Below are positions 33,715 through 63,428 of a DNA stretch of 64,000 nt, piece after piece. The notes beneath the pieces are model-generated. The model saw only the letters and a list, made by a program, of their open reading frames with translations. It had not been told where the DNA came from and did not search any database. Source of the DNA: Halovenus rubra (GTDB taxonomy: Archaea > Halobacteriota > Halobacteria > Halobacteriales > Haloarculaceae); NCBI RefSeq assembly GCF_026586665.1, contig NZ_JAODIY010000016.1, positions 1 to 64,000 of the forward strand, written 5' to 3'. The first letter of the stretch is position 1; each line of letters opens with the position of its first letter. Position numbers and translations under genes: made by a program.

Positions 33715-33771
33715 TCCTCATCCTTTTGCTGTCTTGTGGTTTTGGTGCGTGGCTAACCTGAGGTGAACCTA

Positions 33772-44560: not shown

Positions 44561-44726
44561 GTAAAGACAAATGAGTGCAAACTATCTATTGCGACAGATT
44601 CAGGATTCGACGCCCGAAAAGGAGCGTCCTGTGTGGAATGGCGCTTTTTCGGGGTGGGGCAACCGCCCATCCTTTCCCCCTACCACTGATAACTCACCAA
44701 TAATCCTCCAGTGAGGGGCGTAGACC

Positions 44727-44736
44727 AAATATAAAG
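44727..44736 (+). promoter_or_regulatory. TATA box of the brxA-brxC1-brxB-brxC2 unit
   Basis: AAATATAAAG lies 25-34 bases before the brxA ATG at 44761, as expected for a leaderless haloarchaeal promoter. No binding-site palindrome is obvious around it. Confidence 0.6.
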
Positions 44737-44760
44737 TGGGTCGGTTTAGTCTACCAACGT

Positions 44761-45600
44761 ATGACCCTCATATCCGATGGAGGTGACGCTCCTCTCTCAT
44801 CGTTGTCTGGACAACTTTCGCCAGACGAGGTCAACATGGATCTAACGATGTGCGGTCTCCTTGTTGATCGGGCTGAGGAACTGGCTCAGCTCTATGCAGA
44901 CCAAGGGAACTGGAACGATGTAAAAGAGATCTGGTTCAACGAGCGCCTCTCGAATCGGAGCACACGGGGAAGCTCCCAGAAAATTTTCCGGGTACTGACA
45001 TCGCGTTTCAAAAATGCACCGACAACTCTCCCGAAACCGAGTGTTCTTCCCCAGGTGTTTGACCAGTGTGACACGACCCGAGACAAGGCACAAATCCTCT
45101 ATCTGTATCTTATTTCTGATGATGCCTTGGTTCGGTACGTCGTCCACGAGTACAGTGCTCGTTTAGCTCGGGGTGAGCCAAATCCACTGGATTTCTCGAA
45201 CGAGACTCTCTCAACAATCCTTAGCAACCTCACCTATTCCGATGGCAGCAGCTTTGATTATGCAGAATCGACGACGGAACGGTGGTGCGAAGGGATTCGA
45301 TCTGTTATGCGTGAAATCGGGGTTCTCGATGGACAACAAGCGGTAGAAGGAGATCCCTCGTCAGTAGGAACTATCCCACTTCTTGTCGCATTGGACTATT
45401 CGTTTGAGACGGGTGATGAAGACTGGATTACAGCCCCTAGAGGATTGCTATACCTTTTCCAACCGGAGCAACGCTGGGAAGAACTGTTCGACCGTGCTGC
45501 AAACACCACCGCGTGGGAATATATCGAACTTCACGGAGATCTAGACTTACGCCCCAGTGAAGAAACGTATTCGTGGCTTCAAAATGGAGGTGACAGTTGA
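44761..45600 (+). CDS. brxA: BREX protein BrxA (DUF1819 family)
   Basis: A 279-residue protein matching the BrxA/DUF1819 pattern: an EIWFNERLSNRSTRGSSQKIFR segment (given here as WFNERL...STRGS, ~60-75), a run of helices, then AQILYLYLISDDALVRYVV (key residues LYLYL, ~115-130). BrxA is a small DNA-binding-type NusB-like protein of BREX phage-defence loci. First gene of the locus, with its own TATA box. Its TGA overlaps the brxC1 ATG by one base. The protein is somewhat longer than the ~200 residues of bacterial BrxA, with extra sequence at both ends. Confidence 0.85.
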   Translation: MTLISDGGDAPLSSLSGQLSPDEVNMDLTMCGLLVDRAEELAQLYADQGNWNDVKEIWFNERLSNRSTRGSSQKIFRVLTSRFKNAPTTLPKPSVLPQVFDQCDTTRDKAQILYLYLISDDALVRYVVHEYSARLARGEPNPLDFSNETLSTILSNLTYSDGSSFDYAESTTERWCEGIRSVMREIGVLDGQQAVEGDPSSVGTIPLLVALDYSFETGDEDWITAPRGLLYLFQPEQRWEELFDRAANTTAWEYIELHGDLDLRPSEETYSWLQNGGDS

Positions 45601-48600
45601 TGGTCGATGCGAGTTGGTTTGAAGACCTTCCAGACGATTTCGAGGAATCGGTCCGCATCGACAGGGATGAACGCGATCATCGCAAGCGCGCAATGCAGTC
45701 ATATCACGTAACGTCGGACTCTCAACGCTTCATTCGAGACTTCGTCGACCGGATGCTTGGCCAGGCGGATGATATGCGTACTGGGTCAAACTACTGGCTC
45801 TACGGCTATTACGGCAGCGGAAAGAGCCATCTTCTGACTGTCCTCGACGGATTGCTTGATACCGATTGGCTCGAAGGACAATATAACGATGTCTGGGGTG
45901 ACCTTACGCAAGTAACAGAGGATTCCAGTGTGGACCAATTGCGTGACAATTGGCGGAATATCCACGACGAATATTATGTCATCCCCGTCTCGATCAATCT
46001 TCTGAAATACCAGGGGCAAAAGCAGCGGAGTTTCAGTGAGATCGTTCTCAGACACGCTCATCAGGACCCCGATCTGACTGGTGTTGACGACGAAATCTCG
46101 AATGGACTCTCCTCACAGCTTGATGTCGCCTATTTCGAGAAGTGGTTCCGGACGACCGATGTATGGCCCAACCGCCAGACTCGTGCACAAGAGGTGCTTG
46201 AAACAGTCACTGCCGAGAGCGATGGGTACGACTGGGATTCGGAAAGCCTGTGGAAGGATATCCAGAGCTACAATGCGCTCGCGGATGTGGTTCTACCAAA
46301 ACTCTTCGAGGAGGTGAATGAAACCCGTGATGGGTACACGGACCTCAGACCCTCGGATATCGATCCAGAAGAAGTGGTGACACGGCTGAATCAACTGCGT
46401 GAAGAACGGGAGGAAGAGTTAGGGACACCGGTGAAGTTGGTGTTGCTTCTCGACGAGGTGAGTCTCTTTATTGGGACGGACTTCGAGCGCCTGACTGAAC
46501 TCCAGACGCTCGCGGAGAACATCGATGATATCGGCGATGGCGATATTCAACTCGTCGCGACAGCACAAGCCAAAATTGAAGACGTCCAACCGAAATTTGC
46601 CGCTCACGGAGCCGATTTTAGTATCGTCAAAGACCGTTTCCCGCACCGCTACCAGCTACCCAGTAAACACGTTGGCAACATCGCAAAGCGGCGTCTGTTC
46701 GAGAAGTCCGACCAAGGCGAGGCCCGAGTTCGTGAGGTACTCGAGGAGGCCTCGGTAAAACCGACCGAATCCCTGGTTTACAACGAAATCAAGCAGAATA
46801 CGAAACCGCCACTCGACAGCATCGACGATGAAGAGCTCGTTGAGTTCTATCCATTCCTTCCCTATCACGCTCCTCTGTTCCTCGAAATACTGTTCAATCT
46901 CAGACAGGAAGCCCCTGACCCCGCAAAATCAATCTTCTCGGGGACTGCGCGTGCGATTCTTGCACTCATGCACAATCTCCTCCAGGGTTGGGTTGAAAAC
47001 GGATATCCCGACCACGTCGTCACGCTGGTCGATTTCTATGAACTGATCAAACCAGAGCTGGAGGAGACCCTCGAAAAAGACGTTCGAGTTATCGGAGAGC
47101 TACCCGACGATGACGAGGGTGAGGAGAATAGGTCGCAAAAGGGAGGGAGAAGTATTGCAGACGAAGTCGCAGATGGCAATCTGAAAGCGTTCGATCTCGA
47201 CGTGGCGAAAGCCGTGTTGTTGCTGCAGCACGTCCACGATATCGTCCCACTGAACGAGGGGAACATCGCCGTCTCCGTGATGTCTGACCTCAACGGTCGG
47301 TCGTGGATTAGCACGCAAAACCGAGTCGAAGAATCGCTGGGGAGGCTCCAGAAATTCATCCGACCGACTGAAGACGAATCTGGTGCCAGATACCGGTTCG
47401 CCACACAAGAAGAGCGACTCATCTACGATGAGACCGAGGCAAACGAGGAAGATCCAGACTGGGATGCTATTCTCCACGCATTGGACGAGCATCTCTGGGA
47501 GCGAATTATGCAGGATCTTTCCCTTCCGGAGTCCGTTCCGTATAGTGAATCCGGTGACGAATATCCCGTCGCATATGAATTTAGTCTCGACGGTGTTGGG
47601 TTCGAGACAACCAGGGAAGCCAAGGGAGGTCTAGAAGTCTCCACTGCAGTGCAGGGTGTTCATCCAAGCTATTCGCCAGACAATGGGGATGAAGAAACTC
47701 TTTACTGGGAGATCGATACTGACGGACTCGACGACCTTCGGAAGCACATCGTCGAGTGGTGGGCGCTTCGGGACGCGATCTCGACACACACTGCCCCACC
47801 TGCTGTTGAACGAGATCTCGACCGGCGGGCTAGTGCTGTCAGAAGCAAACTCGTCAGCGCGATGCAGAGCGGTTCCTACACGGTGAAAGATCGAACGAAC
47901 ATCGGGACTCTCACGAAAGCAGTACAAACTGCGGTCGATGTCGGATATCCGGACGACTTCCACCCGATGATGCTCCAAGTGACCGACGACCGACTGCAAG
48001 AACTCGCCGAGCTTTCCACTGAAGATCCGCTCCCAGCATGGGCGCATACAATACAGGTCCCCTCCTCAGATCCATCCGCGAGCCACGGAAAGAAAAGCAT
48101 TCAGCGAAATGTATTGTCGCTCACTGGCCGGCAGTTGAAGGACAAAGAGGACGGTCTCAATATGAATACGGTCCTGGATGGAATTGCTGATGAAAAACTA
48201 TTCTACGATGAGGCCCGCCCTGCATTGCGTGCTATCATCTGGGGATTCTGTCGAGAAGGTCGGCTTGTTCCTGTCGACGAAGACGGGAACACGCTCGCAA
48301 ATGAAGTCGTTCTCGAGCAAAACCAGCTATCGACGACGAGACTGAAACTCCTTCCGCGTGAGCCGATCGGTAATCTCCTCGAAGAGGGTGATTTCAAGCA
48401 GACCACAGAGACAGTCGCTGATGGACTTATCAATCTCCAGGAAGCGAATACACAGCTCCGTTCTGCGCTCACTGGTCTCCAAGAGGACGTCCAATTGGTT
48501 GCAGACACGGATATCCATTCGGACGCTGTCGCTGGCTTGCTTGACGCCCTCGTCGACGAGTTATCAGAACGCATCGATGCAACCTCCGACCGTCTTGCCG

Positions 48601-49355
48601 TCGTCAGGTCCCAAGGAGACGGACTTGGGGATGCGATTGAACAGACTAACGCCGGACAGGAATGGCTCAACGAAGTCGTAGATGTCTGGAATCGACGGCT
48701 CCTATCGCTCTACCACTACGACGTTCAGCTGGTAGTCGGCGACAGTGAGTTCGAATGGATCGACGAGAAGGCGCAGTCATTGGTCGCGGAGCAGCGTGAT
48801 ACTCTCCATGCGTTCGATGGGAGCTGGTGGACGACAGATGGGTGGAAAGTCCTGGTTGGGGAGACTGCCACCGACTGTAGCGCCGAACTCCAACGCTCTT
48901 GGAACGAGTACGTCGATAAGCACGGACTCGCTACATTCGTGGAGCGGCTGGAGGGACATCCGTGGGTTGTTCCTGCAACGGAACTCCCGTCGAGTGTGCA
49001 TGTCGCCTTCGAGCGGACCTACATCACGCCGCTTCGTAAGCTTCGAAGCTGGTACGAAACCGTAGACGAGGCAGTCACAGCACTTGACTCAGATGACGAA
49101 GATACGCTGGCCTCGGTGGCAGATAATATCGCTGGTGTGCAACCTCGAACAGACGCTACCGAAGATGACATCGGCGTACTCGAATCTAGACTTGATCGTC
49201 TCTCTGCAATCGTCGACGATCGGACACCCGAAGATGTGGATCAAATCGGGGTTCTCCCGGACGACCGACAGGGAATTGATCAGCGCCTCGAACGTCTCGT
49301 TGAGAGCAGAGAATTGGACGTAGAGCAGGCTGATTCGGGGGTGATCATCCGATGA
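45600..49355 (+). CDS. brxC: BREX ATPase BrxC/PglY, copy 1
   Basis: A 1251-residue AAA+-like P-loop ATPase, a core BREX component. Walker A is YGSGKSH (71-77) and Walker B is LVLLLDE (~280-286). The long helical C-terminal part has several coiled-coil-like stretches. The start is the ATG at 45600, overlapping the brxA stop, with GGAGGTGA about 6 bases upstream; a TTG one codon earlier is less likely. The end overlaps brxB by ATGA. In BREX systems BrxC is needed for both methylation and defence. A second, clearly different copy (brxC2) follows brxB, which is diagnostic of the type 5 layout. Confidence 0.88.
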   Translation: MVDASWFEDLPDDFEESVRIDRDERDHRKRAMQSYHVTSDSQRFIRDFVDRMLGQADDMRTGSNYWLYGYYGSGKSHLLTVLDGLLDTDWLEGQYNDVWGDLTQVTEDSSVDQLRDNWRNIHDEYYVIPVSINLLKYQGQKQRSFSEIVLRHAHQDPDLTGVDDEISNGLSSQLDVAYFEKWFRTTDVWPNRQTRAQEVLETVTAESDGYDWDSESLWKDIQSYNALADVVLPKLFEEVNETRDGYTDLRPSDIDPEEVVTRLNQLREEREEELGTPVKLVLLLDEVSLFIGTDFERLTELQTLAENIDDIGDGDIQLVATAQAKIEDVQPKFAAHGADFSIVKDRFPHRYQLPSKHVGNIAKRRLFEKSDQGEARVREVLEEASVKPTESLVYNEIKQNTKPPLDSIDDEELVEFYPFLPYHAPLFLEILFNLRQEAPDPAKSIFSGTARAILALMHNLLQGWVENGYPDHVVTLVDFYELIKPELEETLEKDVRVIGELPDDDEGEENRSQKGGRSIADEVADGNLKAFDLDVAKAVLLLQHVHDIVPLNEGNIAVSVMSDLNGRSWISTQNRVEESLGRLQKFIRPTEDESGARYRFATQEERLIYDETEANEEDPDWDAILHALDEHLWERIMQDLSLPESVPYSESGDEYPVAYEFSLDGVGFETTREAKGGLEVSTAVQGVHPSYSPDNGDEETLYWEIDTDGLDDLRKHIVEWWALRDAISTHTAPPAVERDLDRRASAVRSKLVSAMQSGSYTVKDRTNIGTLTKAVQTAVDVGYPDDFHPMMLQVTDDRLQELAELSTEDPLPAWAHTIQVPSSDPSASHGKKSIQRNVLSLTGRQLKDKEDGLNMNTVLDGIADEKLFYDEARPALRAIIWGFCREGRLVPVDEDGNTLANEVVLEQNQLSTTRLKLLPREPIGNLLEEGDFKQTTETVADGLINLQEANTQLRSALTGLQEDVQLVADTDIHSDAVAGLLDALVDELSERIDATSDRLAVVRSQGDGLGDAIEQTNAGQEWLNEVVDVWNRRLLSLYHYDVQLVVGDSEFEWIDEKAQSLVAEQRDTLHAFDGSWWTTDGWKVLVGETATDCSAELQRSWNEYVDKHGLATFVERLEGHPWVVPATELPSSVHVAFERTYITPLRKLRSWYETVDEAVTALDSDDEDTLASVADNIAGVQPRTDATEDDIGVLESRLDRLSAIVDDRTPEDVDQIGVLPDDRQGIDQRLERLVESRELDVEQADSGVIIR

Positions 49356-49942
49356 CTGACTCTCCATATCTCGCGTTCAAAAAGAAGCTGTGTACGTTCG
49401 CTGATGGACAAGCTGGAATCCGAAATCCATTCGTGATCGCAGCGGTCGATCCATCAGTCGAACATAGGGTTGCAGACCGACTCAGTGAATGGGCGACGGG
49501 CACAGGAGAACCCCCAAATGTTGACAAGGAGGTCACGGTCCAACCGATTTGGCTCGACGAACTCCTCCCGGAGACGAAGGTCTACAATCTCTCGGTCGCA
49601 TTGGGTAGCGAGACGACTGCTGAGCGTATTGAAGAGACGATGCAAGATCGTTTGGCGGAGGAACTCGTCGAGGAGATGATTACGAACAAGATTGACGACG
49701 ACGGACTGGAAACGCAACAATACGTCGTATTGCTCCTTAACCTAGGGAGTCTCTATCCGTTCACCCGTGCGTCTGAACTCCTTGATGAACTCGACCGTCG
49801 CAATGTCAGGTCCACTATTGGAATTCCGTTCCCCGGCGATGTCGTCGGCGGGAAATTGAGTTTCTTCGGCGGCAACTCACGGCATTACTATCCAGCACAT
49901 CAAATTGACGGGCGGATTCTGGAGGTGCATCTTCAACAATGA
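49352..49942 (+). CDS. brxB: BREX protein BrxB (DUF1788 family)
   Basis: A 196-residue protein with the BrxB/DUF1788 core: NLGSLYPFTRASELLDEL (~129-146) and, near the end, GIPFPGDVVGGKLSFFGG and a YYPAHQI-like strand. It overlaps the gene before it (ATGA 49352-49355) and the gene after it (ATGA 49939-49942), so its synthesis is coupled to both BrxC proteins. BrxB is a small structural component whose exact action in BREX is not settled. Length is normal for the family. Confidence 0.87.
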   Translation: MTDSPYLAFKKKLCTFADGQAGIRNPFVIAAVDPSVEHRVADRLSEWATGTGEPPNVDKEVTVQPIWLDELLPETKVYNLSVALGSETTAERIEETMQDRLAEELVEEMITNKIDDDGLETQQYVVLLLNLGSLYPFTRASELLDELDRRNVRSTIGIPFPGDVVGGKLSFFGGNSRHYYPAHQIDGRILEVHLQQ

Positions 49943-52900
49943 GTATCAAAGAGCTATTTCGTAGCGATCCAACACGGCAACTCGAAGAAGTCCAGAAAAT
50001 CAATGCACGAGAGCAAGCTGAGACTGATGTCGCAGAGTTCCATGAGACTGAAAGTGCAAAGCGTGTGCTCACAGAACTTGGAGAGGTCATTCAAACCCAT
50101 CCCGGAGAAGCAGCACGCTTTCTCTATCTCCATGCGACCTTCGGATCGGGGAAAACCCACCTATTGAAACTCATCGGACTCGTCGCAGACAGTGAATCAG
50201 AATTCGCATATCTGGGTGATGAACTCGCTCAGCAGTGGCCCGGATTCGACAACCTCGCTCGCTCGATCGACGACTCACACGTTGATCGACTCAAGCCAGT
50301 TTTCCTGAATCTCCTTGATCGGGACGCCTCGAAAGAACCGCCGCTCCCATTCCTCATCTTTGAGGCGATCGGTCGTGAACTCGGCTATCCGACAGACCCG
50401 AATTGGTTGCTCGAGTGGGTCTGGACCGTCGATATGGAATACGACGGTGTCTGGGAGGCACTTCAAACCGAGGAGTATAACATACGGGGCGACAAGATGT
50501 CGTTCGAAGAAGTTCTCGAGGATCGAGGAGGACTACAAAAGTGGCTCAAAGGTGTTCTTCCAGGACTCAGCGAGACAAGCGGAACGCCACTCGCTACCGC
50601 TGCTGGGGTCAGTGACTCTATCAAAAATGCGAAATCGGAGGTGGATCGCGAATCTTTCGATCCGAAGGAATTGGTCGACCGGGTCAACACGGTTACTGAA
50701 GCATTGAACGAAGACGGCCCACACACGGAACTCCTCCTGGGTCTCGACGAGGTGGCTCTATTCGTCGGTGACAGTCGCCATCGCTACCGCGAGTTCGAGG
50801 AGACGATGGAAGCGCTTCAACACGGTCCCAACCCCGTCGTCGTCACGACCGGCCAATATTCGCTGCCAGCAACACGAGAGAGCCTCATCGGTGAGCCGTC
50901 GGACGATCACTGGTCACACCAGCAGATCCCACTCGAAGGCGCAGACACAGAGATCATTGTCCGGAAACGGTGGTTGCAGAAGGACAGTTCGGGCAGTGAT
51001 CGGGTATCATCACTCGTTTCATCGATGCCCGATCTGTCGCTGGAAACGTATTCGCCAGTCGGCAGCGCTGATCCGAATCCGGTTGAGTCGTATCCCTTCC
51101 GCGAGTACGATCTCACTTTGCTCCGAAAGGTGATGCAGGAGTTGATCACTCAGGGGAGAGAGACGAATCGAGACTACATCCAGGGACGAGCGCTGCTCGT
51201 GTTGGTTCGGTCGCTGTTCACGAAGTTCGATTGGGCAACAGCCGAGGAGGGTGCTCTCGTCACGTGGGACGAACTGTTCGACCTCCTTGTCGAGGAGACG
51301 ACGTATGTCCCGCTGTGGGTGCAGGAGATGCTGGACAATACGTTGATCCCGACATTTGACGGCGATGAGAATGCCTGGGAGGTCCGCGTATCGAAAGCTC
51401 TGTACCTCCTCAACCAGACCCCAGCTGTTCCAGCAACACCGGAGAACCTGGGTCGGCTGATGTTCGACGACGTCGATTCCTCTGTCGATGAAAGCGTCGA
51501 AGAGACCGAGTCCGCGTTGAACACGCTCGTCGATAAGCGAAAGGTGCTCACGGAAACGAACGACAAAGGTGACGAAGTATACACGCTTGTCTCGGAAGAA
51601 CAAGAAAGTATTCTCAGCCGAGCCCAGACCAAAGCCGAACAGATTTCACCTCATCAGCTGTCCGCGTGGTTAGAGACACGACTCAGAGAGAACGACGGCT
51701 TCTTCCGGAGCGATACCAGTCTTCACGAGGAGGATGTCGGTGACGAACGGCTCGTCCCGCTCCGGTACGAGTACTCTATTCTCGACCCAGTCGGTCGGGC
51801 TCCAACGACGGAATTCGATGCCGTGCGTATCCGGGTGCTGGCAGACGATCCGGAGACGGTTACTGATCAAGTCGACACGTGGAAGGACGTAAACGACGGC
51901 AGAGCTGGTGGAGAACACATACTCATCGCAATCGAAGTGCCCGAAACAACGCTCGACAGGATTCGGAACGTCCTCGGTATGGAGAAAGTCCTCGGCGATG
52001 AAACGGAGACACATGAGGAACTCGAACGAGAACATCGAACCGACAAACGTCAGCTAGAGTCTTCAGTGACTGATCTCCTTGAGAATGCATCAGTCCACAC
52101 AGTTCACGAGTATCATGGTGAGCGTCCGAGTGCCCTCGAAGAAGTCGTTGAAGACCAAGTTCAGTCCGTGTTTGGGTCGACTCGGAAGGTCCTGTCCCGC
52201 CCACTCGTGGAGGTCGACGATGCGAAGGAATTAGCGAAGTTCTTCAGAGGGAGCGGTGATTGGCCGCTGGCCGATAGCGATGAAGTCATGTTGGGCGTAG
52301 ATACCTCGAATCGGGCAATCGGTACCAGTGGCTGGTGTCGGGAGTTCATCGACGAATACGAACAACAGAGTGCAGTTGACGTCGAAACCTTGCTCCAGCA
52401 AACCCGCACTGCAAACGGTGACTATCGAGGGACGCCCCAGGAGTCAATCGCAGCATTGCTCATCACACTCGCAACGTCCAACGAGAAGGTTGCTCTCAAA
52501 CAAGACACCGACTACGTGACCGACCCAGCAGCGATCGGACGCCAGGTGCGTACGAAGGGCGGTCTCACCTCGTTGCAGGTGCGGTTCGGCGTCGATACGA
52601 TCAATCCCAAGGAAATCCGCAGGGTCGTGTCGACCATCCTCGGTCACAACCCGGAAGGCGACGACCCGGACGCATGGGTCAACGAACTCGCTACCTGGGT
52701 CGACGAAAACAGCGTCCTTGTCAAACGAACGTTTAAGCGCGTCTCTCGCGAGTTCGATGTGTCCCTGGATGCACTCGAAAGCGCATTGTCGCCAGCGTAC
52801 AGTGGTGGCGAGATTACCACTTCGGACCTCGTTGAGGATGGCGTCAAATCGGATGCTGAGACGTTCGCTGACGCTTGTGAACTCTTCGCCGCAGAGGATG

Positions 52901-53754: not shown

Positions 53755-53785
53755 TCAGCAGATGACTACGCGGAGCATAATATTG

Positions 53786-53819
53786 GGTCGTAAGAATATT
53801 TAGGAGTTAGCTTACGACC
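53786..53819 (+). terminator. Hairpin after brxC2, possible terminator
   Basis: GGTCGTAAG (53786-53794) pairs perfectly with CTTACGACC (53811-53819) across a 16-base loop. A T-run (TATTTTT) follows within ~12 bases. The position, 32 bases after the brxC2 stop, fits an end for the first BREX transcript. Confidence 0.5.
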
Positions 53820-54023
53820 AATCGTATTTTTGTCAGTAATTCGCCATCCTCATCGTTGAAAATTCTCAGGTGATAATCACCTGGGGAAGCAAGAGCACCG
53901 TCTTCAGTTTCATAATAAGGGGATGATTGCGTCGAGCCCGTAGACAGTAACTTTCAGGATGAGTCCCAAGAACGAAATCCAAGCTGGGTTCTTGGATATG
54001 TGATTGCATCTGATAATTAGCAA

Positions 54024-54031
54024 TTTATAAG
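54024..54031 (+). promoter_or_regulatory. TATA box of the pglX-pglZ-brxHII unit
   Basis: TTTATAAG lies ~42-49 bases before the pglX ATG at 54073. This would give a short untranslated leader of roughly 15-20 bases and makes pglX-pglZ-brxHII a separate transcription unit. Confidence 0.5.
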
Positions 54032-54072
54032 AGGCTACTGTCAGTCGTTGTTGGCATACTGGTTTACGCTCC

Positions 54073-57000
54073 ATGGAAGACGATTCACTCTCTCAACAGA
54101 AGGCGCAATTGGATAAGGCTGAACGTGAACATCTCGAAGACGTCGTAGAAAACCTTCGTGAACGAGTCGAGGACAATGTTCGATTCCAACTCAAACAGAA
54201 GGGGCTCGATGACGAGCCGGAAGATACGGAGGAGGTCGACGAGGAGCTTCAGCAACTCGTCGAAGCGATCGAACTCGAGGGCGTCGACGGTCACACGTGG
54301 GATGAGGCGTTCGAAAAATACGTCACGGGAGTCGGCTACACTATTGTCAACCGACTCACTGCGCTGCGCTGTATGGAGGTCCGTGACTTCGTCGATAGGG
54401 AGGTAACAAGATTCAAAGAGAATGGCCTGACTCCAGCAGCAGAGCCACTTACCGATGGCACAGAGGACTTTCTGCTGGAGGACGAAGCGATTCTGGAAGC
54501 GTACCATCGCGCGTGTGACACCCTCGCCGAAGAGATCGAGATTCTTTTCGATCGCTCATCTGCCTACAGCCTCATCGACCCCGACGACGACACCTTCGAA
54601 GAACTCTGTGGGATGCTCGACGAGATTCCCGATGACGTCTGGCGTGCCGACGATGTGCTTGGCTGGATCTACGAGTACTACAACCGCCCAGTAGTCGAGG
54701 CGCTTGACGCCAAGAACACTCTCGAGCCCGAGGACGTTGGCCCTGCGAACCAGTTCTACACTCCCCACTGGGTCGTTCGGATGCTCGCGGACAACTCACT
54801 CGGGAAACTTTACCTCGAAGCCACAGGCCGGGAGGACACTATCCCCGAGCCCGAGGCACTCTCTCCTGAGGAGCGGAAGAACCGCCTTGCAACCCCAGAA
54901 GACGCACCAAGCGTTCCCGAACTCTGTACTTACCTCATCCCGGACGAGGAACCGGGCGATGCCCCGGAGTTTGACCACCCACGGGAACTTCGTGTCATCG
55001 ACCCGGCCTGTGGGAGTGGACACTTCCTACTGTATGCCTTCGACATTCTGGAGCGTATCTGGTGGGCAGAGACTGATCTCGACCGCGAAGAGATTCCCGC
55101 GCAGGTGCTGGAACACAACCTCTACGGTGTCGACATCGACCTGCGCTCCTGCCAGCTTTCGGCATTCAATCTGTATCTGAAGGCCCGAACGCGGACGGAG
55201 GCGGAAAATGGTGACTTCGAAATGCCAAACGTCGGAATCGTCTGCGCTGATGCCCGTGTTGCCGAGGTTGAGGAGGCCACCGATGTGCTCGACGAGATTA
55301 CCGGCGAGGGCAGCGACCTCCGTGAAGCACTGGACGATGTCATCGAGACGTTCCAGCACACCGAAGCGCTCGGAAGTTTGTTGGATGTGAGTGGAACATT
55401 GGAGGAAGCGTTCGACTCCAGCAAGAATCAAGCGGAACTCAGCGATTACAACGGGGGTGCTCACCAGTCGCTGAATTCGTTCCTAAAGACTCTCCGTCGA
55501 GCCGTCGAAGATCGGACAAGTGATTCCTTCGGCGAGCAGAATCTCAGAAGCTTCCTGAATCTGCTGGTGGTGCTGACGCAGGATTATGATGTTTCTCTGA
55601 TGAATCCTCCTTATGGGGCAAGTGGACGTATGCCAAAGGAGGTCAGCAAATACGTGAAGGAGCACTACACCTACACGCCCGAATATTATGTCAATTTCTT
55701 TGAGATATGTAATAATCTCTCCAAAGAATTTGGCCGCATCGGGATGATCGTACAGAGATCATTTATGTATAAAAGCAGCTTCACCGATTTCCGAGAGGAT
55801 CTGATCGGCGAAATCGGTGCATTTGACTTTTTAGCTGAATACGGGAACGACGTTCTTGACAAAGCTACCGTTCGAACCGCAGGAACGATCGTTCGGAGCG
55901 GAAGCGGAATCTCTGAAGATGCAGCCGGAGTATTCTATCGTCTTCACGATCTTAATGCCGCCGAGAAAGAGGAAGGTTTCCTACATGCTGCGTTCTTTGA
56001 TAACCCAACTGGTGAAGTCAGACGTGAATACCACAGAGAGTTGTCTGAATTTAATTTAATTCCTGAAAGTCCACTCTCCTACTGGGTACCAATAGAGCTA
56101 CGCCATCTCTACACGGCAGAAACCGTATTTGATGCTGAAAACGGTCGGGTAGATCGAAAAAGTGTTGGTAATGTGAAAGTCGGACTACAGACAGGCGACG
56201 ATCAAAGATTCACTCGAAAGTTTTGGGAGATCAAAACTGGATTCTGGGTACCATTTGCAAAAGGTGGAGAAGATGCTTGGATACTCCCCAGCGTTGACCT
56301 TGCTCTTGGATGGGGTGAGGACGGTGAAGAGATTAAGCGATGGGAAAGTTCGAGGCCACAGAATACTCAGTACTACTTCTCAGAGGCGCTAACATACACA
56401 TATATGAAATCGAGTGGGCGGAGATTTGGGTATCTTCATCCCTCGTCTATCTTCGGTCACGCTGGGAACGTGTTCATTCCTCAAAATAGTACTTGGCACG
56501 CGCTCGCGTACGCTAATAGCCACTTAATGACGTATCTAATGCTCTGCCAGACCCCAGAGCGACACTGGGAAGTCGGGAATGTCTCGAAGGTACCTTGGAA
56601 TGAACAGCTAGAGTCGAAAAATGAATTAGAGGCACTCTCTCACGAGGTCGTCGGCCACCTAATCTCTAAACGACAGTATGATTTTACTTCTCCCTACTAT
56701 TCTGGGCCAATTCTCTTGGATATGATTGACACAGGGAGTGTCCATCCAATATACAGTGATCATCCACATAGAGAGATCATGAATATATCGACACTTGATA
56801 CGCCTACAGAAAACATCTCAACGGATGAGCCCGTCTCGCGGATCGCTATTGCTGCAAGCAAACACTTAGAGCGAATCGAAGGTGAATTACAGCGTTGCGC
56901 GAGAGAAATTGATAGATCAGTATTTAATTGTTTTGGTATAACTGATGAAAGTAAAGAAATTATTTTTGACGAAATTACTCTGCGGACGAATGAAACCCCT

Positions 57001-58290
57001 CGTGTTCAGGAAGAGTACGATCCAGAATCTATCACGGAACCCTCTGACGATTTTCCCAATCAAATTAAAGACCTTCTTCTCCACTTCACTATCCGTGCTG
57101 TCGACAACGCTGATGATGGCATCATTCCACTTTCCGATGTCGACGGGAAGAAGGATCTCCTCGCCCACATTGAATCGGAATTCGAACGCATCTGGGGGAA
57201 ACACGCAACTGACCGGCTCGCCGAAGTCGACGAGGTACTGGGGAGTCAGAGCGCGGCTGCGGAGGCGTACCCTAACCTCCGGACGTGGCTTGAACAGGAC
57301 CTCTTCGACTACCACGTTTCGACGTTCGACCGAACGCCGGTTCTCTGGCGGTTCACTACCGAGCGTCTCGTCTCGGACCCCGAAGGCGAAGGGTTCGGTT
57401 GTCTGGTCGACTACCACCAACTGGACAAGGGGGTCTTTGACCGCCTGCAGAACCGCTATCTCGAGCCACGGAAGAATCTTCTGCGGGAGCGCCGCATCGC
57501 CGCAAATCGACGCCGGAGTGACGACTCGCTCTCGGCAAGCGAGCAGGCCGAGGCTACCGAAGAGTACTCTCGGTGTGAGAGCGGGATCGAACAAATCGCG
57601 GTGTTCGAGGATCGACTAGCCGAACTTGTCCAGTCCGATCCCCGACAGTGGTCGACCGAGGAGCGGCAGGCCGCCAAGGCGGCCGCCGACCGCGTCGCCG
57701 AGTTCCGCCGTCGAACAGAAGAACGTCTCGAGATTGTCGACGAACTTGACGCGATGGAGGATGTCGATATGGGTGAACTGTTCACCGGGAACTTCTACGA
57801 GAAGGTCGAAAACCTACGTAAGGAGTGGATTGACGCATTGGAGGACCTTGAGACGGCGTTTGACGCCTACGCGGCAGATTCAGATCAGCCAGTCGAAGCA
57901 CATCTGTACGACCTGTTCGACTACTATACCGACGACCTCCTCGGGACTCAGCACTTCGCGAGCAACGGCATCCTCTACATGACGTACTACTTCGACGGCT
58001 TCGAACAGGCCGATCAGGCTCGTCTTGACGACGCTGGCATCTCACGGCGACAACGGTTGATCTCGCAGCTTGCGAGTGATCTTTACGAGTATATCGAACT
58101 GGGTGAATCCATATCCGAAGACTGTGCTGAATTTTCGTCAGCGATTCCTTCGGACTGGAGCGACCGCGCACTCTCGGAGATCACGACCGCCGGATACAAA
58201 CCGAACCACAAGCATGGTGTCGAGATCAACGTCACTCCGCTCGCAGAGGCCGAAATCGTTCCAGAGTCTGTGGAGGATGACGTCCTGTAA
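54073..58290 (+). CDS. pglX: BREX adenine-specific DNA methyltransferase PglX
   Basis: A 1405-residue N6-adenine methyltransferase that marks host DNA in BREX. The SAM motif is DPACGSGHF (~312-320) and the catalytic motif is NPPYG (~511-515). N-terminal helical and C-terminal coiled-coil regions flank the catalytic core. The stretch ~540-980 (about 55690-57010) should contain the target-recognition part. It is visibly more AT-rich than the rest of the gene, as if exchanged by recombination. The frame is intact. pglZ follows after 2 bases. The start is the first ATG after the upstream TATA box. Confidence 0.9.
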   Translation: MEDDSLSQQKAQLDKAEREHLEDVVENLRERVEDNVRFQLKQKGLDDEPEDTEEVDEELQQLVEAIELEGVDGHTWDEAFEKYVTGVGYTIVNRLTALRCMEVRDFVDREVTRFKENGLTPAAEPLTDGTEDFLLEDEAILEAYHRACDTLAEEIEILFDRSSAYSLIDPDDDTFEELCGMLDEIPDDVWRADDVLGWIYEYYNRPVVEALDAKNTLEPEDVGPANQFYTPHWVVRMLADNSLGKLYLEATGREDTIPEPEALSPEERKNRLATPEDAPSVPELCTYLIPDEEPGDAPEFDHPRELRVIDPACGSGHFLLYAFDILERIWWAETDLDREEIPAQVLEHNLYGVDIDLRSCQLSAFNLYLKARTRTEAENGDFEMPNVGIVCADARVAEVEEATDVLDEITGEGSDLREALDDVIETFQHTEALGSLLDVSGTLEEAFDSSKNQAELSDYNGGAHQSLNSFLKTLRRAVEDRTSDSFGEQNLRSFLNLLVVLTQDYDVSLMNPPYGASGRMPKEVSKYVKEHYTYTPEYYVNFFEICNNLSKEFGRIGMIVQRSFMYKSSFTDFREDLIGEIGAFDFLAEYGNDVLDKATVRTAGTIVRSGSGISEDAAGVFYRLHDLNAAEKEEGFLHAAFFDNPTGEVRREYHRELSEFNLIPESPLSYWVPIELRHLYTAETVFDAENGRVDRKSVGNVKVGLQTGDDQRFTRKFWEIKTGFWVPFAKGGEDAWILPSVDLALGWGEDGEEIKRWESSRPQNTQYYFSEALTYTYMKSSGRRFGYLHPSSIFGHAGNVFIPQNSTWHALAYANSHLMTYLMLCQTPERHWEVGNVSKVPWNEQLESKNELEALSHEVVGHLISKRQYDFTSPYYSGPILLDMIDTGSVHPIYSDHPHREIMNISTLDTPTENISTDEPVSRIAIAASKHLERIEGELQRCAREIDRSVFNCFGITDESKEIIFDEITLRTNETPRVQEEYDPESITEPSDDFPNQIKDLLLHFTIRAVDNADDGIIPLSDVDGKKDLLAHIESEFERIWGKHATDRLAEVDEVLGSQSAAAEAYPNLRTWLEQDLFDYHVSTFDRTPVLWRFTTERLVSDPEGEGFGCLVDYHQLDKGVFDRLQNRYLEPRKNLLRERRIAANRRRSDDSLSASEQAEATEEYSRCESGIEQIAVFEDRLAELVQSDPRQWSTEERQAAKAAADRVAEFRRRTEERLEIVDELDAMEDVDMGELFTGNFYEKVENLRKEWIDALEDLETAFDAYAADSDQPVEAHLYDLFDYYTDDLLGTQHFASNGILYMTYYFDGFEQADQARLDDAGISRRQRLISQLASDLYEYIELGESISEDCAEFSSAIPSDWSDRALSEITTAGYKPNHKHGVEINVTPLAEAEIVPESVEDDVL

Positions 58291-58292
58291 TC

Positions 58293-60443
58293 ATGCCAGC
58301 AACCAAAACACTCCCACAGTGCGCTCACGGCGCAATCGAGAACGCTATCGACCAAGCCGCAGACGATGATCCCGTCATCCTCTGGTGGGACGACGGCGGC
58401 TACCTCCGTGACATCGTCCGAAACACCAGCCACCAACTCGGCTGTGAGTTCCGAGCCGCTGAACAGACGCCTCTCGAACTCCGCGCAGAGGCACCACGAG
58501 ACCAAACCGTCTGGTACGTTCCACACCCCAGTAGCGACGACGTCGACTGGTTCAAAGACGTTGAACACACCGGCGACGTAATCGAACAGCATATCGGGAA
58601 GCTCGCAGTTCGCTGCTTCGAAAACGACCGGCTTCAAGCGGCGACGATTCGGACAGCATACGAGGACGCCGATGACCGAGAGAAGGTCGCCAAGACACTC
58701 TACGAAGAACTCAATGGCGAAGGTGGCCTCCCGTCTCTCCAGGGTCTTCAAACGAAAATCGTCCTCGACGGACACGACGACCCCGTTCAGTTCGTCCTCG
58801 AACATGGGACGGAGAATCTCCCCGAAAAAGACGATCTGATCGAGATCCGAGATTTACTGGCCGACAAGGGTGTCGCGTCCGTCGACGGCGAAAGCGATGC
58901 GCAGACTATCGTCGAACGAACGCGGCGCTGGGCTGTCGCGGAGTGGCTTGTCGATGAAGGGATGGACAAATCCCTGTTCCCGCAGGAGTACCAGCCCGAA
59001 TCCAACAGTGGGCTCGGTGTCTCTCGACCAGAACTCCGCTCTGTCCTGAGCAAAACCGAACGCAAGCAGGAACTGGCTCGCATCTATCTCAACCCAGAGA
59101 ACCGATTCTGGCACGACGTCCTTCGCACATACGACGACCCGTGGGAACTCGCTGACTGCCCCGTCGATGCCTCACTCGAACACCGCCTCTGGGACGAGTG
59201 GACGCAATCGTTCAACGCCGGCGACTACGAAGGGTGTGCAACCCAAGCGGAACAACGCTACGAACGCCTTAACGCCACCTACGGCGACGTTTCGTGGACA
59301 AGGCTCTGGGGCCAGGCCATCGACATCGCGACGCTCGCGAACGAACTCGAAACCTGGGAAGAAACAGGTAATACTAGCGATGTCGTGGAGCTATACGGCG
59401 ACGTAGAGGATGGAACGTGGCAGATCGACAACGCCGTGTTCAACCTCATCATCTCTGGCGAGCCGGAAACTGTCCTTCCAGAAGAACATCCTGCAACAGC
59501 GAAACTCGAAGATCTCCGCTCGTCGTTGGTCGAATCCAGATATCTTGAGTACCTCACAGACATTGGTGACCTCGTCGAGGACCAGATCGAAGCCGGTTCA
59601 CCGTTCGTCGGTGAGAACCACGCCCATCAGTTCTTCGCTGAGGAGCAGGAACATCTCCAGAGTGGGCAGAGCGTCGCGCTGTTCATCGTCGACGCCCTGC
59701 GCTTCGACCTCGCACACGAACTCGCAGAGTCAATCCGACGTGACCTCCCCCAGCTCGAAGTAGACGAGAGCAAGTGGATTGGTACGCTACCTTCAGATAC
59801 TGAGTTCGGGAAGGCCGCCCTCACCCCCGGTAGCAAGTTTAGCTTCAACATCGAACTGCAGGACGGCGAACTTTTTCCCGAGCGGAACGGTCGCAAGATC
59901 ACGAATCACCGCCGACAGACGCTTCTCGAGAACGATGGCTGGAGCTACATCATGCAGGACGCCGATGACGAGGTCGGCTGGAGCAACACGCGCGTCGCCT
60001 ACTACTGGAACGATATCGACGAGACCGGCGAAAAGGAACTCACGGACTTCGAGGAGCTGTTCAGCGACCGCATCGACGCTATCTCCCGGATCATCACCGA
60101 GAAGCTCCGGAAAGGCGAGTGGGACCGTGCGTACATCCTCTCAGATCACGGCTTCGTCTCACTCCCACGGCACGTCGACATCGACGATCTATACCCATCG
60201 AGCAACGCCGAGAAGGTGACTCGCCGGTGGGTCGCCGGCGCGGACCTCGACGACGACGCCCCTGGGGTCCTGTTGGACGAAGACACACACCTGGGCTACC
60301 TCGACGACGATGCCAGAGTTAGCATCCTGACCGACCCGATTCAGCGCTTCAGGAACCAGGGACTCCCGGATGCCCGCTTCTACCACGGTGGCGTCCTCCC
60401 TCAGGAGTTCGTCCTGAACTTCGTCACGATTGCGCAAGAATAA
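58293..60443 (+). CDS. pglZ: BREX phosphatase-fold protein PglZ
   Basis: A 716-residue protein with the PglZ domain in its C-terminal half. The alkaline-phosphatase-type metal site appears as FIVDALRFD (~463-471) and ILSDHGF (~613-619), and the family end motif is YHGGVLPQE (~699-707). PglZ is the hallmark protein of all BREX types and is essential for defence. It starts 2 bases after pglX and ends 6 bases before the helicase gene, so the three are one operon. Length is normal for this family. Confidence 0.9.
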   Translation: MPATKTLPQCAHGAIENAIDQAADDDPVILWWDDGGYLRDIVRNTSHQLGCEFRAAEQTPLELRAEAPRDQTVWYVPHPSSDDVDWFKDVEHTGDVIEQHIGKLAVRCFENDRLQAATIRTAYEDADDREKVAKTLYEELNGEGGLPSLQGLQTKIVLDGHDDPVQFVLEHGTENLPEKDDLIEIRDLLADKGVASVDGESDAQTIVERTRRWAVAEWLVDEGMDKSLFPQEYQPESNSGLGVSRPELRSVLSKTERKQELARIYLNPENRFWHDVLRTYDDPWELADCPVDASLEHRLWDEWTQSFNAGDYEGCATQAEQRYERLNATYGDVSWTRLWGQAIDIATLANELETWEETGNTSDVVELYGDVEDGTWQIDNAVFNLIISGEPETVLPEEHPATAKLEDLRSSLVESRYLEYLTDIGDLVEDQIEAGSPFVGENHAHQFFAEEQEHLQSGQSVALFIVDALRFDLAHELAESIRRDLPQLEVDESKWIGTLPSDTEFGKAALTPGSKFSFNIELQDGELFPERNGRKITNHRRQTLLENDGWSYIMQDADDEVGWSNTRVAYYWNDIDETGEKELTDFEELFSDRIDAISRIITEKLRKGEWDRAYILSDHGFVSLPRHVDIDDLYPSSNAEKVTRRWVAGADLDDDAPGVLLDEDTHLGYLDDDARVSILTDPIQRFRNQGLPDARFYHGGVLPQEFVLNFVTIAQE

Positions 60444-60449
60444 CCATCT

Positions 60450-63359
60450 ATGAATGACCTCGAACCCGGAGACACAATCCTCCTCAACGATCAGCCCGCC
60501 GAGGTCATCAAGACGTACTCCGTCGGTGATCTCCATTATCTCAGAGCCTACGTCGAGAACGTCGGTGTGAAGACCGTCTGCATCGACGACGTGAACATCG
60601 AGCCGAAGGGAGAACAACTTAGCGCACTCGATCCCGCAACTGCAGGACAACTGCATCCAGATCACGACGCTGTCTCTGCTGAGTGGTTCGACTTACGCTC
60701 TCAGGCCCTCCAACTTCAGATTGCTCACGAGCAGGGGCAACTACTCAGTATCTCGAACTCGCTTGTTCGCTTGGAACCATACCAACTGGCCTGCGTGAAC
60801 TGGGTGATGCAGAAGCTCCGCCAGCGAGCGCTCATCGCCGACGATGTCGGCTTGGGGAAGACAATCGAGGCGGGACTCATCCTGAAAGAACTCACCGCAC
60901 GCAATCGGGCAGATCGAGTGCTGTTCGTCGTTCCTGCACATCTCCAGAAGAAGTGGATTCGGGATATGGACCGCTTCTTCGATATCTCATTGACACCTGG
61001 CGACCGACAGTGGGTTGAGGGCGAGCGCCGTCGGCTCGGTGAGGAGGCGAACATCTGGAACCAGGACCACCAGCAGATGGTCACGAGCATGGCGTTCCTA
61101 CGTCAGGAAGAGTTCCGCGATGACCTCGACGATGCGTTCTGGGACGTTGTCGTCGTCGACGAAGCGCACAAAGCGGCCAAGCGTGGTGAGTCTCCGAGCA
61201 AGACCTCGAAGATGGTCGACCGAGTTGCGGACAACTCTGACTCGCTACTTCTCCTAAGTGCAACACCACACGACGGCAAGGGGGAAGCCTTCCGCTCTCT
61301 CGTCGAATACATCGATCCGTTCCTCGTCGCGGAAGATCAAGAACTCTCAAAAGAGGCCGTCGACCGCGTGATGATGCGTCGGGGCAAGCAAACGATCTAC
61401 GACGACAACGGTGAACGAATTTTCCCCAATCGCGAAGTTGGGACGATACCTGTCGAGCGGACTCACGAAGAGAAGCAGTTCTACGAGGCAGTCACTGAGT
61501 ACGTCAAACATGTCTATAATCGCTCGGAGCAGCTCAATGAGCCCGCAGTCGGGTTTGCGATGGCCCTGATGCAAAAGCGCCTCGTGAGTAGTATTGGGGC
61601 GATCCAAGCCACCCTAAGCCGCCGGCTGGCGAACCTGGTCGACCAGGAATCCACTGCAACCTCGCTCTCCGAAGAAGCCTCGGCGTACCTCGAAGGCGAA
61701 GACCTCGACGAGGATGACAAACAAAAGGCCGAGGAAGAACTTGGAGGACTCACGATTACCGAGAGTGACGCCCAACTCGAAGAGGAGATCGAAACGCTTC
61801 GCGACCTTGTCTCCCTCGCCGAAGGAATTCCTGTCGACTCGAAGGCCCAGAAAGTCCGTCGGTACATCCAGCAACTACTCGAGGAGAATCCAAACGAGAA
61901 GGTACTGCTGTTCACTGAGTACCGAGACACGCTCGATTACATTCTCGAACTCGTGAAGGACGAACCGTGGGCCGACGAGATTCTAACCATCCACGGTGAC
62001 GTTGACAAAGAGGACCGGGCGAAGATCGAAGACGAGTTTAACCACGGACAGTCTCGACTACTGTTCGCGACTGACGCGGCGAGCGAAGGGATCGATCTTC
62101 AGCACAGTTGCCACATCATGGTCAATTACGAGCTCCCGTGGAATCCGAACCGGCTCGAACAGCGGATCGGTCGCCTCCATCGGTACGGCCAGGACAAGGA
62201 AGTGAAGGTGTGGAACTTCACGTTTGAGGACACTCGCGAAGGTGAGATCTTCGAGATGCTCCAGGACAAAGTCGAGAACATCCGGGGGAAGCTCGGGAAC
62301 ACTGCTGATGTCCTTGGGATGCTCGACGACATCGACGTGGACTCGCTCATCATGGAGTCCATTCGGAATGACGAACCAGCGAGTGCGACGAAAGAGGAAC
62401 TTGAAGAACTCATCGACGAACGACAGCGGACGCTCCAGGAGTGGCACGAGCGCAGTCTCGTCGACACGAGTACCTTCGACCAGGAGAGTCGAGAGAAGAT
62501 CCAAGAAGTGATGGATCAATCCGAAGATGTCTACGGCAGCGAGGCTGACATCCGAGAATTCTTCGAGCGCGGGATTACGGCACTGGGTGGCGATGTCGAA
62601 AAAGCCGGTACGAATCTGTTCCGAGCCGAGTTACCAGACCAACTCCGTCAATCTGCTAGTGACAACTCCTATGGTCCGTTCACATTCAATCGAGAGTTTG
62701 CGATGGATCACGATGACATCGAATACATCTCTCCGGATGCACGGCTGGTCCAGGAATTGATGCAGCAAGTCCTCGACGGCGAACAGGGTGCTGTTGGTCT
62801 CAAGATGCTCCCGTTTGTCGATAATCCAGGGATCACCTACAACTATCGAGTCCGATTTGAGGACGGTACTGGCGAAGTGATTCGTGAAGAGATACTCCCT
62901 GTCTTCGTCGATGCAGCACATAACGATCCGCAAGAGCGTCTCGGACAGCGCGTCGTCGATGGAAACAGCATCAAAGGTTCTCCTGATGAAGAGCCGATTC
63001 GAATTCTGCTAGAAAACGAGGGTGAAATGCGTTCGTCCGCCGACCGATATATCAGCCAACGAGTCGAGTCACGTCGTGACGAACTCCAGAAACGGAGGGG
63101 CGAAGAGACACAACAGGAACTTGAAGATCTCGAGGCCTATGCGGAGTCTGAACGGGAACGAATAGAGACGTTCATTGCCGAATACGAGCGGAAGGCAGAA
63201 GCAGGGACGGACATGGATATCGCGATCAGAGGACAGCGGGATCGACTCTCGAAGCTAGAAGATCGCATCGAGCAACGCCGGCAGGAGTTGAATCGAAAAG
63301 CACAGGTCATCTCGCTTGCTCCAGATATCGAGAATCTCTGCTTGACTCTCCCAATCTAG
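60450..63359 (+). CDS. brxHII: BREX-associated SNF2-type helicase BrxHII
   Basis: A 969-residue superfamily 2 helicase/translocase. Motif I is DVGLGKTIEAG (~135-145), motif II is VVDEAHKA (~234-241), motif III is LLSATPH and motif VI is QRIGRLHRYGQ (~570-580). A long acidic coiled-coil stretch lies between the two RecA-like halves (~400-470) and another at the C-terminus (~855-950). It is the last gene of the locus. DEAH helicases of this type accompany the type 5 and some other BREX layouts, probably moving along DNA during recognition of invading phage. A terminator-like hairpin follows. Confidence 0.86.
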   Translation: MNDLEPGDTILLNDQPAEVIKTYSVGDLHYLRAYVENVGVKTVCIDDVNIEPKGEQLSALDPATAGQLHPDHDAVSAEWFDLRSQALQLQIAHEQGQLLSISNSLVRLEPYQLACVNWVMQKLRQRALIADDVGLGKTIEAGLILKELTARNRADRVLFVVPAHLQKKWIRDMDRFFDISLTPGDRQWVEGERRRLGEEANIWNQDHQQMVTSMAFLRQEEFRDDLDDAFWDVVVVDEAHKAAKRGESPSKTSKMVDRVADNSDSLLLLSATPHDGKGEAFRSLVEYIDPFLVAEDQELSKEAVDRVMMRRGKQTIYDDNGERIFPNREVGTIPVERTHEEKQFYEAVTEYVKHVYNRSEQLNEPAVGFAMALMQKRLVSSIGAIQATLSRRLANLVDQESTATSLSEEASAYLEGEDLDEDDKQKAEEELGGLTITESDAQLEEEIETLRDLVSLAEGIPVDSKAQKVRRYIQQLLEENPNEKVLLFTEYRDTLDYILELVKDEPWADEILTIHGDVDKEDRAKIEDEFNHGQSRLLFATDAASEGIDLQHSCHIMVNYELPWNPNRLEQRIGRLHRYGQDKEVKVWNFTFEDTREGEIFEMLQDKVENIRGKLGNTADVLGMLDDIDVDSLIMESIRNDEPASATKEELEELIDERQRTLQEWHERSLVDTSTFDQESREKIQEVMDQSEDVYGSEADIREFFERGITALGGDVEKAGTNLFRAELPDQLRQSASDNSYGPFTFNREFAMDHDDIEYISPDARLVQELMQQVLDGEQGAVGLKMLPFVDNPGITYNYRVRFEDGTGEVIREEILPVFVDAAHNDPQERLGQRVVDGNSIKGSPDEEPIRILLENEGEMRSSADRYISQRVESRRDELQKRRGEETQQELEDLEAYAESERERIETFIAEYERKAEAGTDMDIAIRGQRDRLSKLEDRIEQRRQELNRKAQVISLAPDIENLCLTLPI

Positions 63360-63370: not shown

Positions 63371-63428
63371 TGAACTACCCCCTGCCTCAAAGAGCCACCA
63401 GCGGCGGTGAAAGGGCAGGGGTAGTTCA
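63371..63428. terminator. Bidirectional hairpin between brxHII and the convergent nuclease gene
   Basis: The left arm TGAACTACCCCCTGCC (63371-63386) and the right arm GGCAGGGGTAGTTCA (63414-63428) are inverted copies with a one-base bulge. The right arm overlaps the stop codon of the minus-strand gene. It serves both converging genes as a likely transcript end. A short palindromic mobile-element end is the alternative. Confidence 0.6.

What the first reader, a model, noticed from the sequence alone, without database searches (positions are those of the whole stretch)
44761..63359. Complete BREX phage-defence locus of the haloarchaeal type 5 layout
Seven intact genes are in order: brxA, brxC1, brxB, brxC2, pglX, pglZ, brxHII. 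Each has its key motif (two different P-loop ATPases, methyltransferase DPACGSG/NPPY, PglZ metal site, DEAH helicase). Duplicated brxC with a helicase matches what has been described as BREX type 5, known from Halobacteria. All frames are open, so the system is probably active. This is the main biological system of the window; its type is known, but few archaeal members have been studied.
Basis: partly seen in the sequence, partly recalled or inferred. Interest (0 to 1): 0.85.

Follow-up and report, generated by a model that had tools for sequence, protein, structure and literature searches.

The report
Haloarchaeal type 5 BREX antiviral locus
This is a complete, well-preserved copy of an already described antiviral system of salt-loving archaea (BREX type 5), one of two in the same genome that probably recognise different DNA sequences, and each of the two lies beside an AddAB-like DNA-degrading enzyme pair that turns up near such systems more often than expected.

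Summary
Seven intact, co-directional genes (44761-63359) match the BREX type 5 models over their full lengths, including NCBIfam's BREX-5 PglX and BREX-5 PglZ models far above cut-off. Catalytic motifs are intact, and the gene order is shared by most of about 27 related loci. Activity is inferred, not shown.

The tools added four things. (1) The same genome carries a second BREX-5, split over two contigs. Its parts are 82-95% identical, except PglX, whose putative specificity region (about residues 510-1030) falls to 47%, so the two systems probably read different motifs. All genes are under purifying selection. (2) The locus is two transcription units, each behind a TATA-like promoter conserved across genera. 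(3) Relatives carry cargo genes or a second pglX at fixed junctions; the window copy is the plain seven-gene form. (4) An AddAB-like helicase-nuclease pair starts 66 bp past brxHII. In 391 Halobacteria, 15 of 30 AddB-like genes in PglZ-positive genomes lie within 25 kb of pglZ, in several orientations, against 0 of 18 type I HsdR genes. I did not find this link in the papers I could search. It may be a recurrent accessory effector, or only island neighbourhood.

The parts
44719..44760 (+). promoter of the first unit, TATA-like GACCAAATATAAAGT about 30 bases before the brxA ATG (leaderless layout)
   Evidence: Block conserved in the own second copy and in most relatives across genera while sequence just upstream is unrelated
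44761..45600 (+). brxA, 279 aa, DNA-binding BREX protein
   Evidence: PADLOC BrxA PDLC02456 469 bits, Pfam BrxA 33 bits
45597..49355 (+). brxC1, 1252 aa, first BrxC/PglY P-loop ATPase (ATG start at 45600 more likely)
   Evidence: PADLOC BrxC PDLC02474 2064 bits; Walker A in 25/25 orthologues
49352..49942 (+). brxB, 196 aa
   Evidence: Pfam BrxB 47 bits, PADLOC BrxB 343 bits
49939..53754 (+). brxC2, 1271 aa, second BrxC ATPase, 23% identical to brxC1
   Evidence: PADLOC BrxC PDLC02473 2133 bits; Walker A in 27/28 orthologues; BLASTP with BrxC1
53755..54072 (+). 318-base non-coding junction; cargo genes sit here in many relatives; last about 55 bases are the conserved pglX promoter
   Evidence: No ORF, no Rfam match; junction comparison; promoter alignment A2
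54073..58290 (+). pglX, 1405 aa, N6-adenine methyltransferase and probable specificity factor; variable putative recognition region about residues 510-1030
   Evidence: NCBIfam BREX_5_MTaseX 2434 bits; variability profile over 23 PglX
58293..60443 (+). pglZ, 716 aa, alkaline-phosphatase-fold protein, probable metal-dependent nuclease
   Evidence: NCBIfam BREX_PglZ_5 1183 bits; DALRFD/SDHG/HGG motifs
60450..63359 (+). brxHII, 969 aa, SNF2/DEAH helicase; no C-terminal restriction-nuclease domain found
   Evidence: PADLOC BrxHII 1988 bits; Pfam shows helicase domains and a RapA_C match below cut-off only
63426..64000 (-). 3' end of the AddA-like UvrD helicase-nuclease gene (full gene C8:63426-67199), followed by the AddB-like gene (C8:67135-70320): recurrent neighbour, possible accessory effector
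   Evidence: Pfam UvrD-helicase, UvrD_C, PDDEXK_1; linkage statistics

Best explanation
A complete, chromosomal haloarchaeal BREX type 5 antiviral system in its plain seven-gene form. PglX, helped by BrxB, BrxC and PglZ, methylates an adenine in a short non-palindromic motif on host DNA and is also the specificity factor. On incoming DNA without the mark, the same complex, built on a scaffold of one or both BrxC ATPases, blocks replication. PglZ acts as a metal-dependent nuclease and BrxHII takes the helicase/translocase place that BrxL has in type 1. The first four genes and pglX-pglZ-brxHII form two transcription units with their own promoters. The identity, gene content and intactness are shown here; the mechanism is carried over from type 1 BREX; activity and target motif are not shown. 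A second BREX-5 with a different PglX recognition region in the same genome probably reads another motif. The neighbouring AddAB-like helicase-nuclease may degrade DNA ends made by the system (inference).
For: Type-specific family matches over full length. Intact motifs conserved in orthologues. Seven-gene order shared with most of about 27 related loci. Second copy on C33+C6 with dN/dS of 0.06-0.13 for all genes and PglX identity of 47% in residues 505-1030 against 83-86% outside. Promoters before brxA and pglX conserved across genera. [quoted passage not shown] a BrxBCXZ complex exists, and systems without BrxL carry BrxH (PMC11842806); type 5 lies within the type 1 clade, with helicases replacing BrxL (PMC12839542); type 5 is reported only from Halobacteria (PMC9240713).
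Against: Nothing contradicts the identity. Expression, methylation and virus exclusion are untested. Some relatives have lost or broken pglX, brxHII or both, so BREX-5 loci do decay, though this one shows no sign of it.
Confidence: 0.93

Rival explanations
1. The locus is intact but silent, or kept only as a methyltransferase: pglX marks DNA for regulation, and the defence part is idle in this host because the second BREX-5 does the work.
For: A second, closely similar BREX-5 exists in the genome. pglX has its own conserved promoter. BREX-like PglX methyltransferases occur sporadically throughout Halobacteria (PMC10609329).
Against: All seven genes, not only pglX, are under strong purifying selection between the copies (dN/dS 0.06-0.13), and the brxA promoter is conserved too.
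Confidence: 0.15
2. The functional unit is larger than seven genes: the AddAB-like helicase-nuclease pair is an accessory effector of haloarchaeal BREX that degrades DNA opened by PglZ, as RecBCD does for restricted phage DNA.
For: 15 of 30 AddB-like genes in PglZ-positive genomes lie within 25 kb of pglZ, against 0 of 18 HsdR; co-occurrence odds ratio 4.0, p = 5e-6. Four arrangements: directly after brxHII in the same direction in five genomes, about 0.1-0.3 kb upstream and divergent in four, convergent in both own copies, 1.3 kb after pglZ in one. Helicase and PD-(D/E)XK motifs intact.
Against: Most BREX-5 loci have no AddAB-like pair nearby. 56 of 84 AddB-positive genomes lack a BREX PglZ. 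Such pairs also sit in other defence islands (one about 5 kb from an HsdR in G106). Own AddAB pairs are far more diverged (71-73%) than most of the BREX genes beside them. Genomes are not independent.
Confidence: 0.35
3. It is a type 3 BREX or a DISARM system rather than type 5, since brxHII is typical of type 3 and the helicase also matches DrmD.
For: BrxHII is a core gene of type 3 (PMC12839542); the DISARM DrmD model scores 478 bits on the helicase.
Against: The DrmD score is under its cut-off of 610. PglX matches the type 5 model at 2434 bits and PglZ the type 5 model at 1183 bits. BrxA and BrxB are present and BrxC is doubled; the genes match BREX PADLOC models end to end.
Confidence: 0.01

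Closest known systems
BREX type 5 of Halobacteria (Goldfarb et al. 2015; NCBIfam NF033454 and NF033444; PADLOC BREX models)
   Same: All seven genes, protein lengths and type-specific models; host class Halobacteria; BrxHII instead of BrxL; gene order as in most related loci.
   Different: Nothing in the core. The window PglX recognition region is at most 58% identical to any sampled relative, so its motif is probably its own; an AddAB-like pair lies next to it.
BREX type 1 (six genes with BrxL; E. coli, E. fergusonii, Salmonella, Acinetobacter)
   Same: BrxA, BrxB, BrxC, PglX and PglZ homologues; source of the mechanistic model.
   Different: Two BrxC paralogues, no BrxL, BrxHII helicase added; distant sequence similarity (NCBIfam BrxC model 234 and 153 bits against a cut-off of 400).
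Second BREX-5 of the same genome (contigs C33 and C6)
   Same: Same seven genes in the same order; 82-95% identical except PglX; same convergent AddAB-like pair downstream.
   Different: PglX recognition region 47% identical; at least four cargo ORFs between brxC2 and pglX and a 178-aa gene between pglX and pglZ; split by an assembly break.
AddAB/RecBCD-type helicase-nucleases
   Same: UvrD helicase plus PD-(D/E)XK nuclease in one subunit, PD-(D/E)XK nuclease in the other, adjacent genes.
   Different: Accessory and patchy in Halobacteria (84 of 391 genomes) and linked to BREX more often than expected; function untested.

Membership tests
BREX type 5 | PglZ-domain protein of the type 5 clade | tested here: met
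   NF033444 BREX_PglZ_5 1183 bits, cut-off 250
BREX type 5 | PglX adenine methyltransferase of the type 5 clade with motifs I and IV | tested here: met
   NF033454 2434 bits, cut-off 900; DPACGSGHF and NPPY
BREX type 5 | BrxA and BrxB present | tested here: met
   Pfam BrxA 32.6 bits (cut-off 23) and BrxB 47.4 bits (cut-off 26.8); PADLOC
BREX type 5 | Two brxC/pglY genes (definition from my own knowledge of Goldfarb 2015; paper not held) | tested here: met
   Two different full-length BrxC models, 2064 and 2133 bits; both present together in most relatives
BREX type 5 | BrxHII helicase in place of BrxL | tested here: met
   PADLOC BrxHII 1988 bits; no BrxL-like gene among the seven
BREX type 5 | Found in Halobacteria | tested here: met
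   Nearest relatives are named Halobacteria; 62 of 391 genomes of the class carry a PglZ relative
BREX type 5 | Methylates a non-palindromic motif and excludes viruses | not testable with these tools
   Needs methylation calling and plating
DISARM | DrmD above cut-off, DrmA, DrmB and DrmC present | tested here: not met
   DrmD 478 bits below the 610 cut-off; the neighbours match BREX families
BREX type 1 | BrxL present, BrxC above the NF033441 cut-off | tested here: not met
   Neither BrxC reaches the NF033441 cut-off of 400; no BrxL in the locus

The most novel reading that the evidence does not exclude
Haloarchaeal BREX recurrently recruits an AddAB-like helicase-nuclease as an accessory effector, so that the functional system here is nine genes (BREX-5 plus AddAB), and this genome runs two such systems with different PglX specificity in parallel.
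Probability: 0.35. Interest if true: 0.55.

Novelty: new member of a known kind. Interest (0 to 1): 0.36.

Why it matters
How BREX stops viral DNA is still open, and archaeal type 5 appears to be functionally untested. This genome offers a natural comparison: two near-identical BREX-5 machines with different PglX recognition regions. The repeated AddAB-like neighbour offers a concrete, testable candidate for an accessory DNA-degrading step.

Tried and rejected
Small RNA or hidden gene in the 318-base brxC2-pglX gap: no ORF; no Rfam match over the threshold; fold z-score only -2.05; its three short perfect inverted repeats were not recovered in relatives' gaps, where only the pglX promoter end is shared. 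Treated as spacer.

Phase variation of pglX by inversion: only two pglX copies in the genome, each full length and in its own BREX locus; no partial copy was listed. Not supported.

AddAB as an ancestral part of the duplicated unit: rejected as stated, since AddAB pairs differ at 27-29% of residues with saturated silent sites while most of the adjacent BREX genes are close. They may instead have been acquired or exchanged separately.

Integration site of an island at tRNA-Glu (33640-33714): an integrase follows the tRNA, but no repeat of the tRNA 3' end was found in the rest of the contig.

Goldfarb 2015 is not held.

Full report
What is there. Seven open, co-directional genes fill 44761-63359. 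HMM scans identify them as brxA, brxC, brxB, brxC, pglX, pglZ and brxHII, each matching a PADLOC model essentially end to end. NCBIfam, which has type-specific models, scores PglX as BREX-5 at 2434 bits (cut-off 900) and PglZ as BREX-5 at 1183 bits (cut-off 250). The two BrxC proteins are only 23% identical to each other and match two different BrxC models. Catalytic motifs are intact in all enzymes and, for most motifs, in all or nearly all orthologues collected. The brxC1 start is better placed at the ATG at 45600, which overlaps the brxA stop codon.

Transcription units. The first four genes overlap by a few bases each. pglX, pglZ and brxHII are separated by 2 and 6 bases. A 318-base non-coding stretch lies between the two groups. 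The 40 bases before brxA (GACCAAATATAAAGTGGGTCGGTTTAGTCTACCAACGTATG) are nearly identical in the own second copy and in several relatives of other genera, and the box is recognisable in most of the rest, while the sequence just upstream is unrelated. A second conserved block (consensus CGGCAACATTNAAG...CTGTCAGT...CATAC) precedes pglX in 14 loci. Both look like archaeal promoters close to the start codon. So pglX, pglZ and brxHII are probably transcribed apart from brxA-brxC2, and cargo between the units need not disturb either.

A second BREX-5 in the genome. The window is C8:1-64000 of a 3.57 Mb, 48-contig genome. PglX and BrxC2 searches found a second set: brxA-brxC1-brxB-brxC2 on C33 and pglX-178 aa gene-pglZ-brxHII on C6. 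A 137-aa gene on C6 and a relative of it at the end of C33 suggest that the contigs adjoin, but this is inference. Amino-acid identity is 95, 89, 88, 82, 90 and 94% for BrxA, BrxC1, BrxB, BrxC2, PglZ and BrxHII, and 71% for PglX. Within PglX, identity is 83-86% outside residues 505-1030 and 47% inside. The same stretch is the most variable one across 23 PglX proteins, and the window's version is at most 58% identical to any of them. PglX is the specificity factor in type 1 BREX (PMC11341690, abstract), so different target motifs are the simplest reading. That residues 510-1030 are the recognition region is inferred from variability, not shown by structure. Silent divergence over the whole pglX gene is at or near saturation while the other BREX genes have dS 0.36-0.93, so pglX as a whole has a separate history, as if swapped. 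dN/dS is 0.06-0.13 for all seven genes: both copies have been kept functional.

Relatives. In 391 Halobacteria genomes, 62 have a PglZ relative: a close group (68-91% identity, 29 genomes including this one), a second group at 51-53%, and a third at 35-39%. The seven-gene order is shared by most of the close group. Additions occur at fixed junctions: cargo genes between brxC2 and pglX, a 178-aa gene between pglX and pglZ, and a second pglX between pglZ and brxHII in four close relatives. Several relatives have a split or lost pglX. The window copy is the plain form. In the third group pglX and brxHII sit on the opposite strand: ahead of brxA in G127, between brxA and brxC1 in G130. One relative in the genome's own genus, G366, has the same match coordinates (4-2169) as the Halovenus sp. 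record L021, so the host is probably Halovenus or close to it, family Haloarculaceae (inference).

The AddAB-like neighbour. The gene that begins at the right edge of the window (stop at 63426, - strand) is a 1257-aa UvrD helicase with a PD-(D/E)XK domain; the next is a 1061-aa AddB-like nuclease. The second BREX-5 has the same pair in the same place. AddB-like genes occur in 84 of 391 genomes. They co-occur with BREX PglZ (28 genomes with both; odds ratio 4.0, p = 5e-6), and 15 of the 30 AddB copies in PglZ-positive genomes lie within 25 kb of pglZ; type I HsdR, as a control defence gene, gives 0 of 18. Arrangements differ: co-directional right after brxHII (five genomes), divergent upstream of brxA with roughly 0.1-0.3 kb between (four), convergent after brxHII (both own copies), 1.3 kb after pglZ (one), and a few more distant. 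This points to repeated association rather than one inheritance. The NAR 2026 survey of BREX neighbourhoods (PMC12839542) lists many auxiliary nucleases but its main text has no UvrD, AddA, AddAB or RecB; a search for BREX with AddAB gave only reviews and a preprint on other systems with both words. Cautions: genomes are related (at least two pairs have near-identical layouts), islands cluster defence genes, one AddB lies about 5 kb from an HsdR, and the p-value under uniform placement overstates the case.

Mechanism. From type 1 work: PglX with BrxB, BrxC and PglZ forms a complex (PMC11842806); [quoted passage not shown] Systems without BrxL have BrxH (PMC11842806). In type 5 I expect one or both BrxC ATPases to be the scaffold, BrxHII the translocase, and PglZ the nuclease. 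All of this is transfer from homologues. A subset of type 5 BrxHII carries a C-terminal nuclease (PMC12839542); no such domain was detected in this one. A haloarchaeal BREX-type PglX motif, CTGGAG (m6A) in Haloterrigena, is listed in PMC10609329, so the prediction of a non-palindromic m6A motif is reasonable here.

Verdict. A sound finding, correctly read: an intact BREX type 5 locus, a new member of a known kind. The added interest lies in two parallel systems with divergent PglX and in the AddAB-like link, which needs a better controlled survey and a deletion test.

Noticed in passing
L006 (C33:1-16000) and L005 (C6:1-20000): Second BREX-5 in the same genome, with cargo between brxC2 and pglX (a 437-aa ORF that reads like a metallophosphoesterase, and ORFs of 188, 560 and 469 aa) and a 178-aa ORF between pglX and pglZ; those scanned have no Pfam or strong PADLOC name.
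   Followed up: partly
window 63426-64000 and C8:67135-70320 (L007): AddA-like and AddB-like helicase-nuclease pair next to brxHII; statistically linked to BREX PglZ in Halobacteria.
   Followed up: yes
L016 (12219-16451), L018 (12241-16560), L024 (12243-16538) and genome G136: A second full-length pglX lies between pglZ and brxHII, so one BREX-5 machine may serve two specificities.
   Followed up: partly
L025, L026, L027; genomes G127, G130, G316, G355: A divergent BREX group (PglZ 33-39% identical) with brxA-brxC-brxB-brxC-pglZ; where they could be read, pglX and brxHII lie on the opposite strand, ahead of brxA or between brxA and brxC1. May merit its own subtype.
   Followed up: partly
genomes G065, G069, G091, G079, G108, G239, G334: pglX is split, truncated or missing in relatives, as are parts of brxHII in some, which fits costly or easily lost restriction.
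   Followed up: no
window 33640-34985: tRNA-Glu (CTC) followed directly by a phage-type integrase: probable left edge of an island; no repeat of the tRNA end found on the contig.
   Followed up: partly
window 43860-44560: What looks by eye like broken transposase-type coding sequence just upstream of the BREX promoter; not searched against a library apart from one short ORF without a Pfam match.
   Followed up: no
window 42835-43512, 40594-42678 and 38921-39919: Candidate defence protein PDC-M57B, a 694-aa pentapeptide-repeat protein and an ADP-ribosylglycohydrolase lie between the integrase and BREX.
   Followed up: partly
L007 10604-14985 (C8:70603-74984): 827-aa ORF with a weak PADLOC match to ZacB (33 bits), preceded by a 633-aa ORF with no match, just beyond the AddAB-like pair.
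   Followed up: no
G000:C48:166167-166580: The own genome's only HsdR_N match is a short frame with an internal stop, so its type I restriction subunit looks broken.
   Followed up: no
window 53786-53995: Three short perfect inverted repeats (9, 8 and 8 base arms) in the brxC2-pglX gap, not found in relatives.
   Followed up: partly
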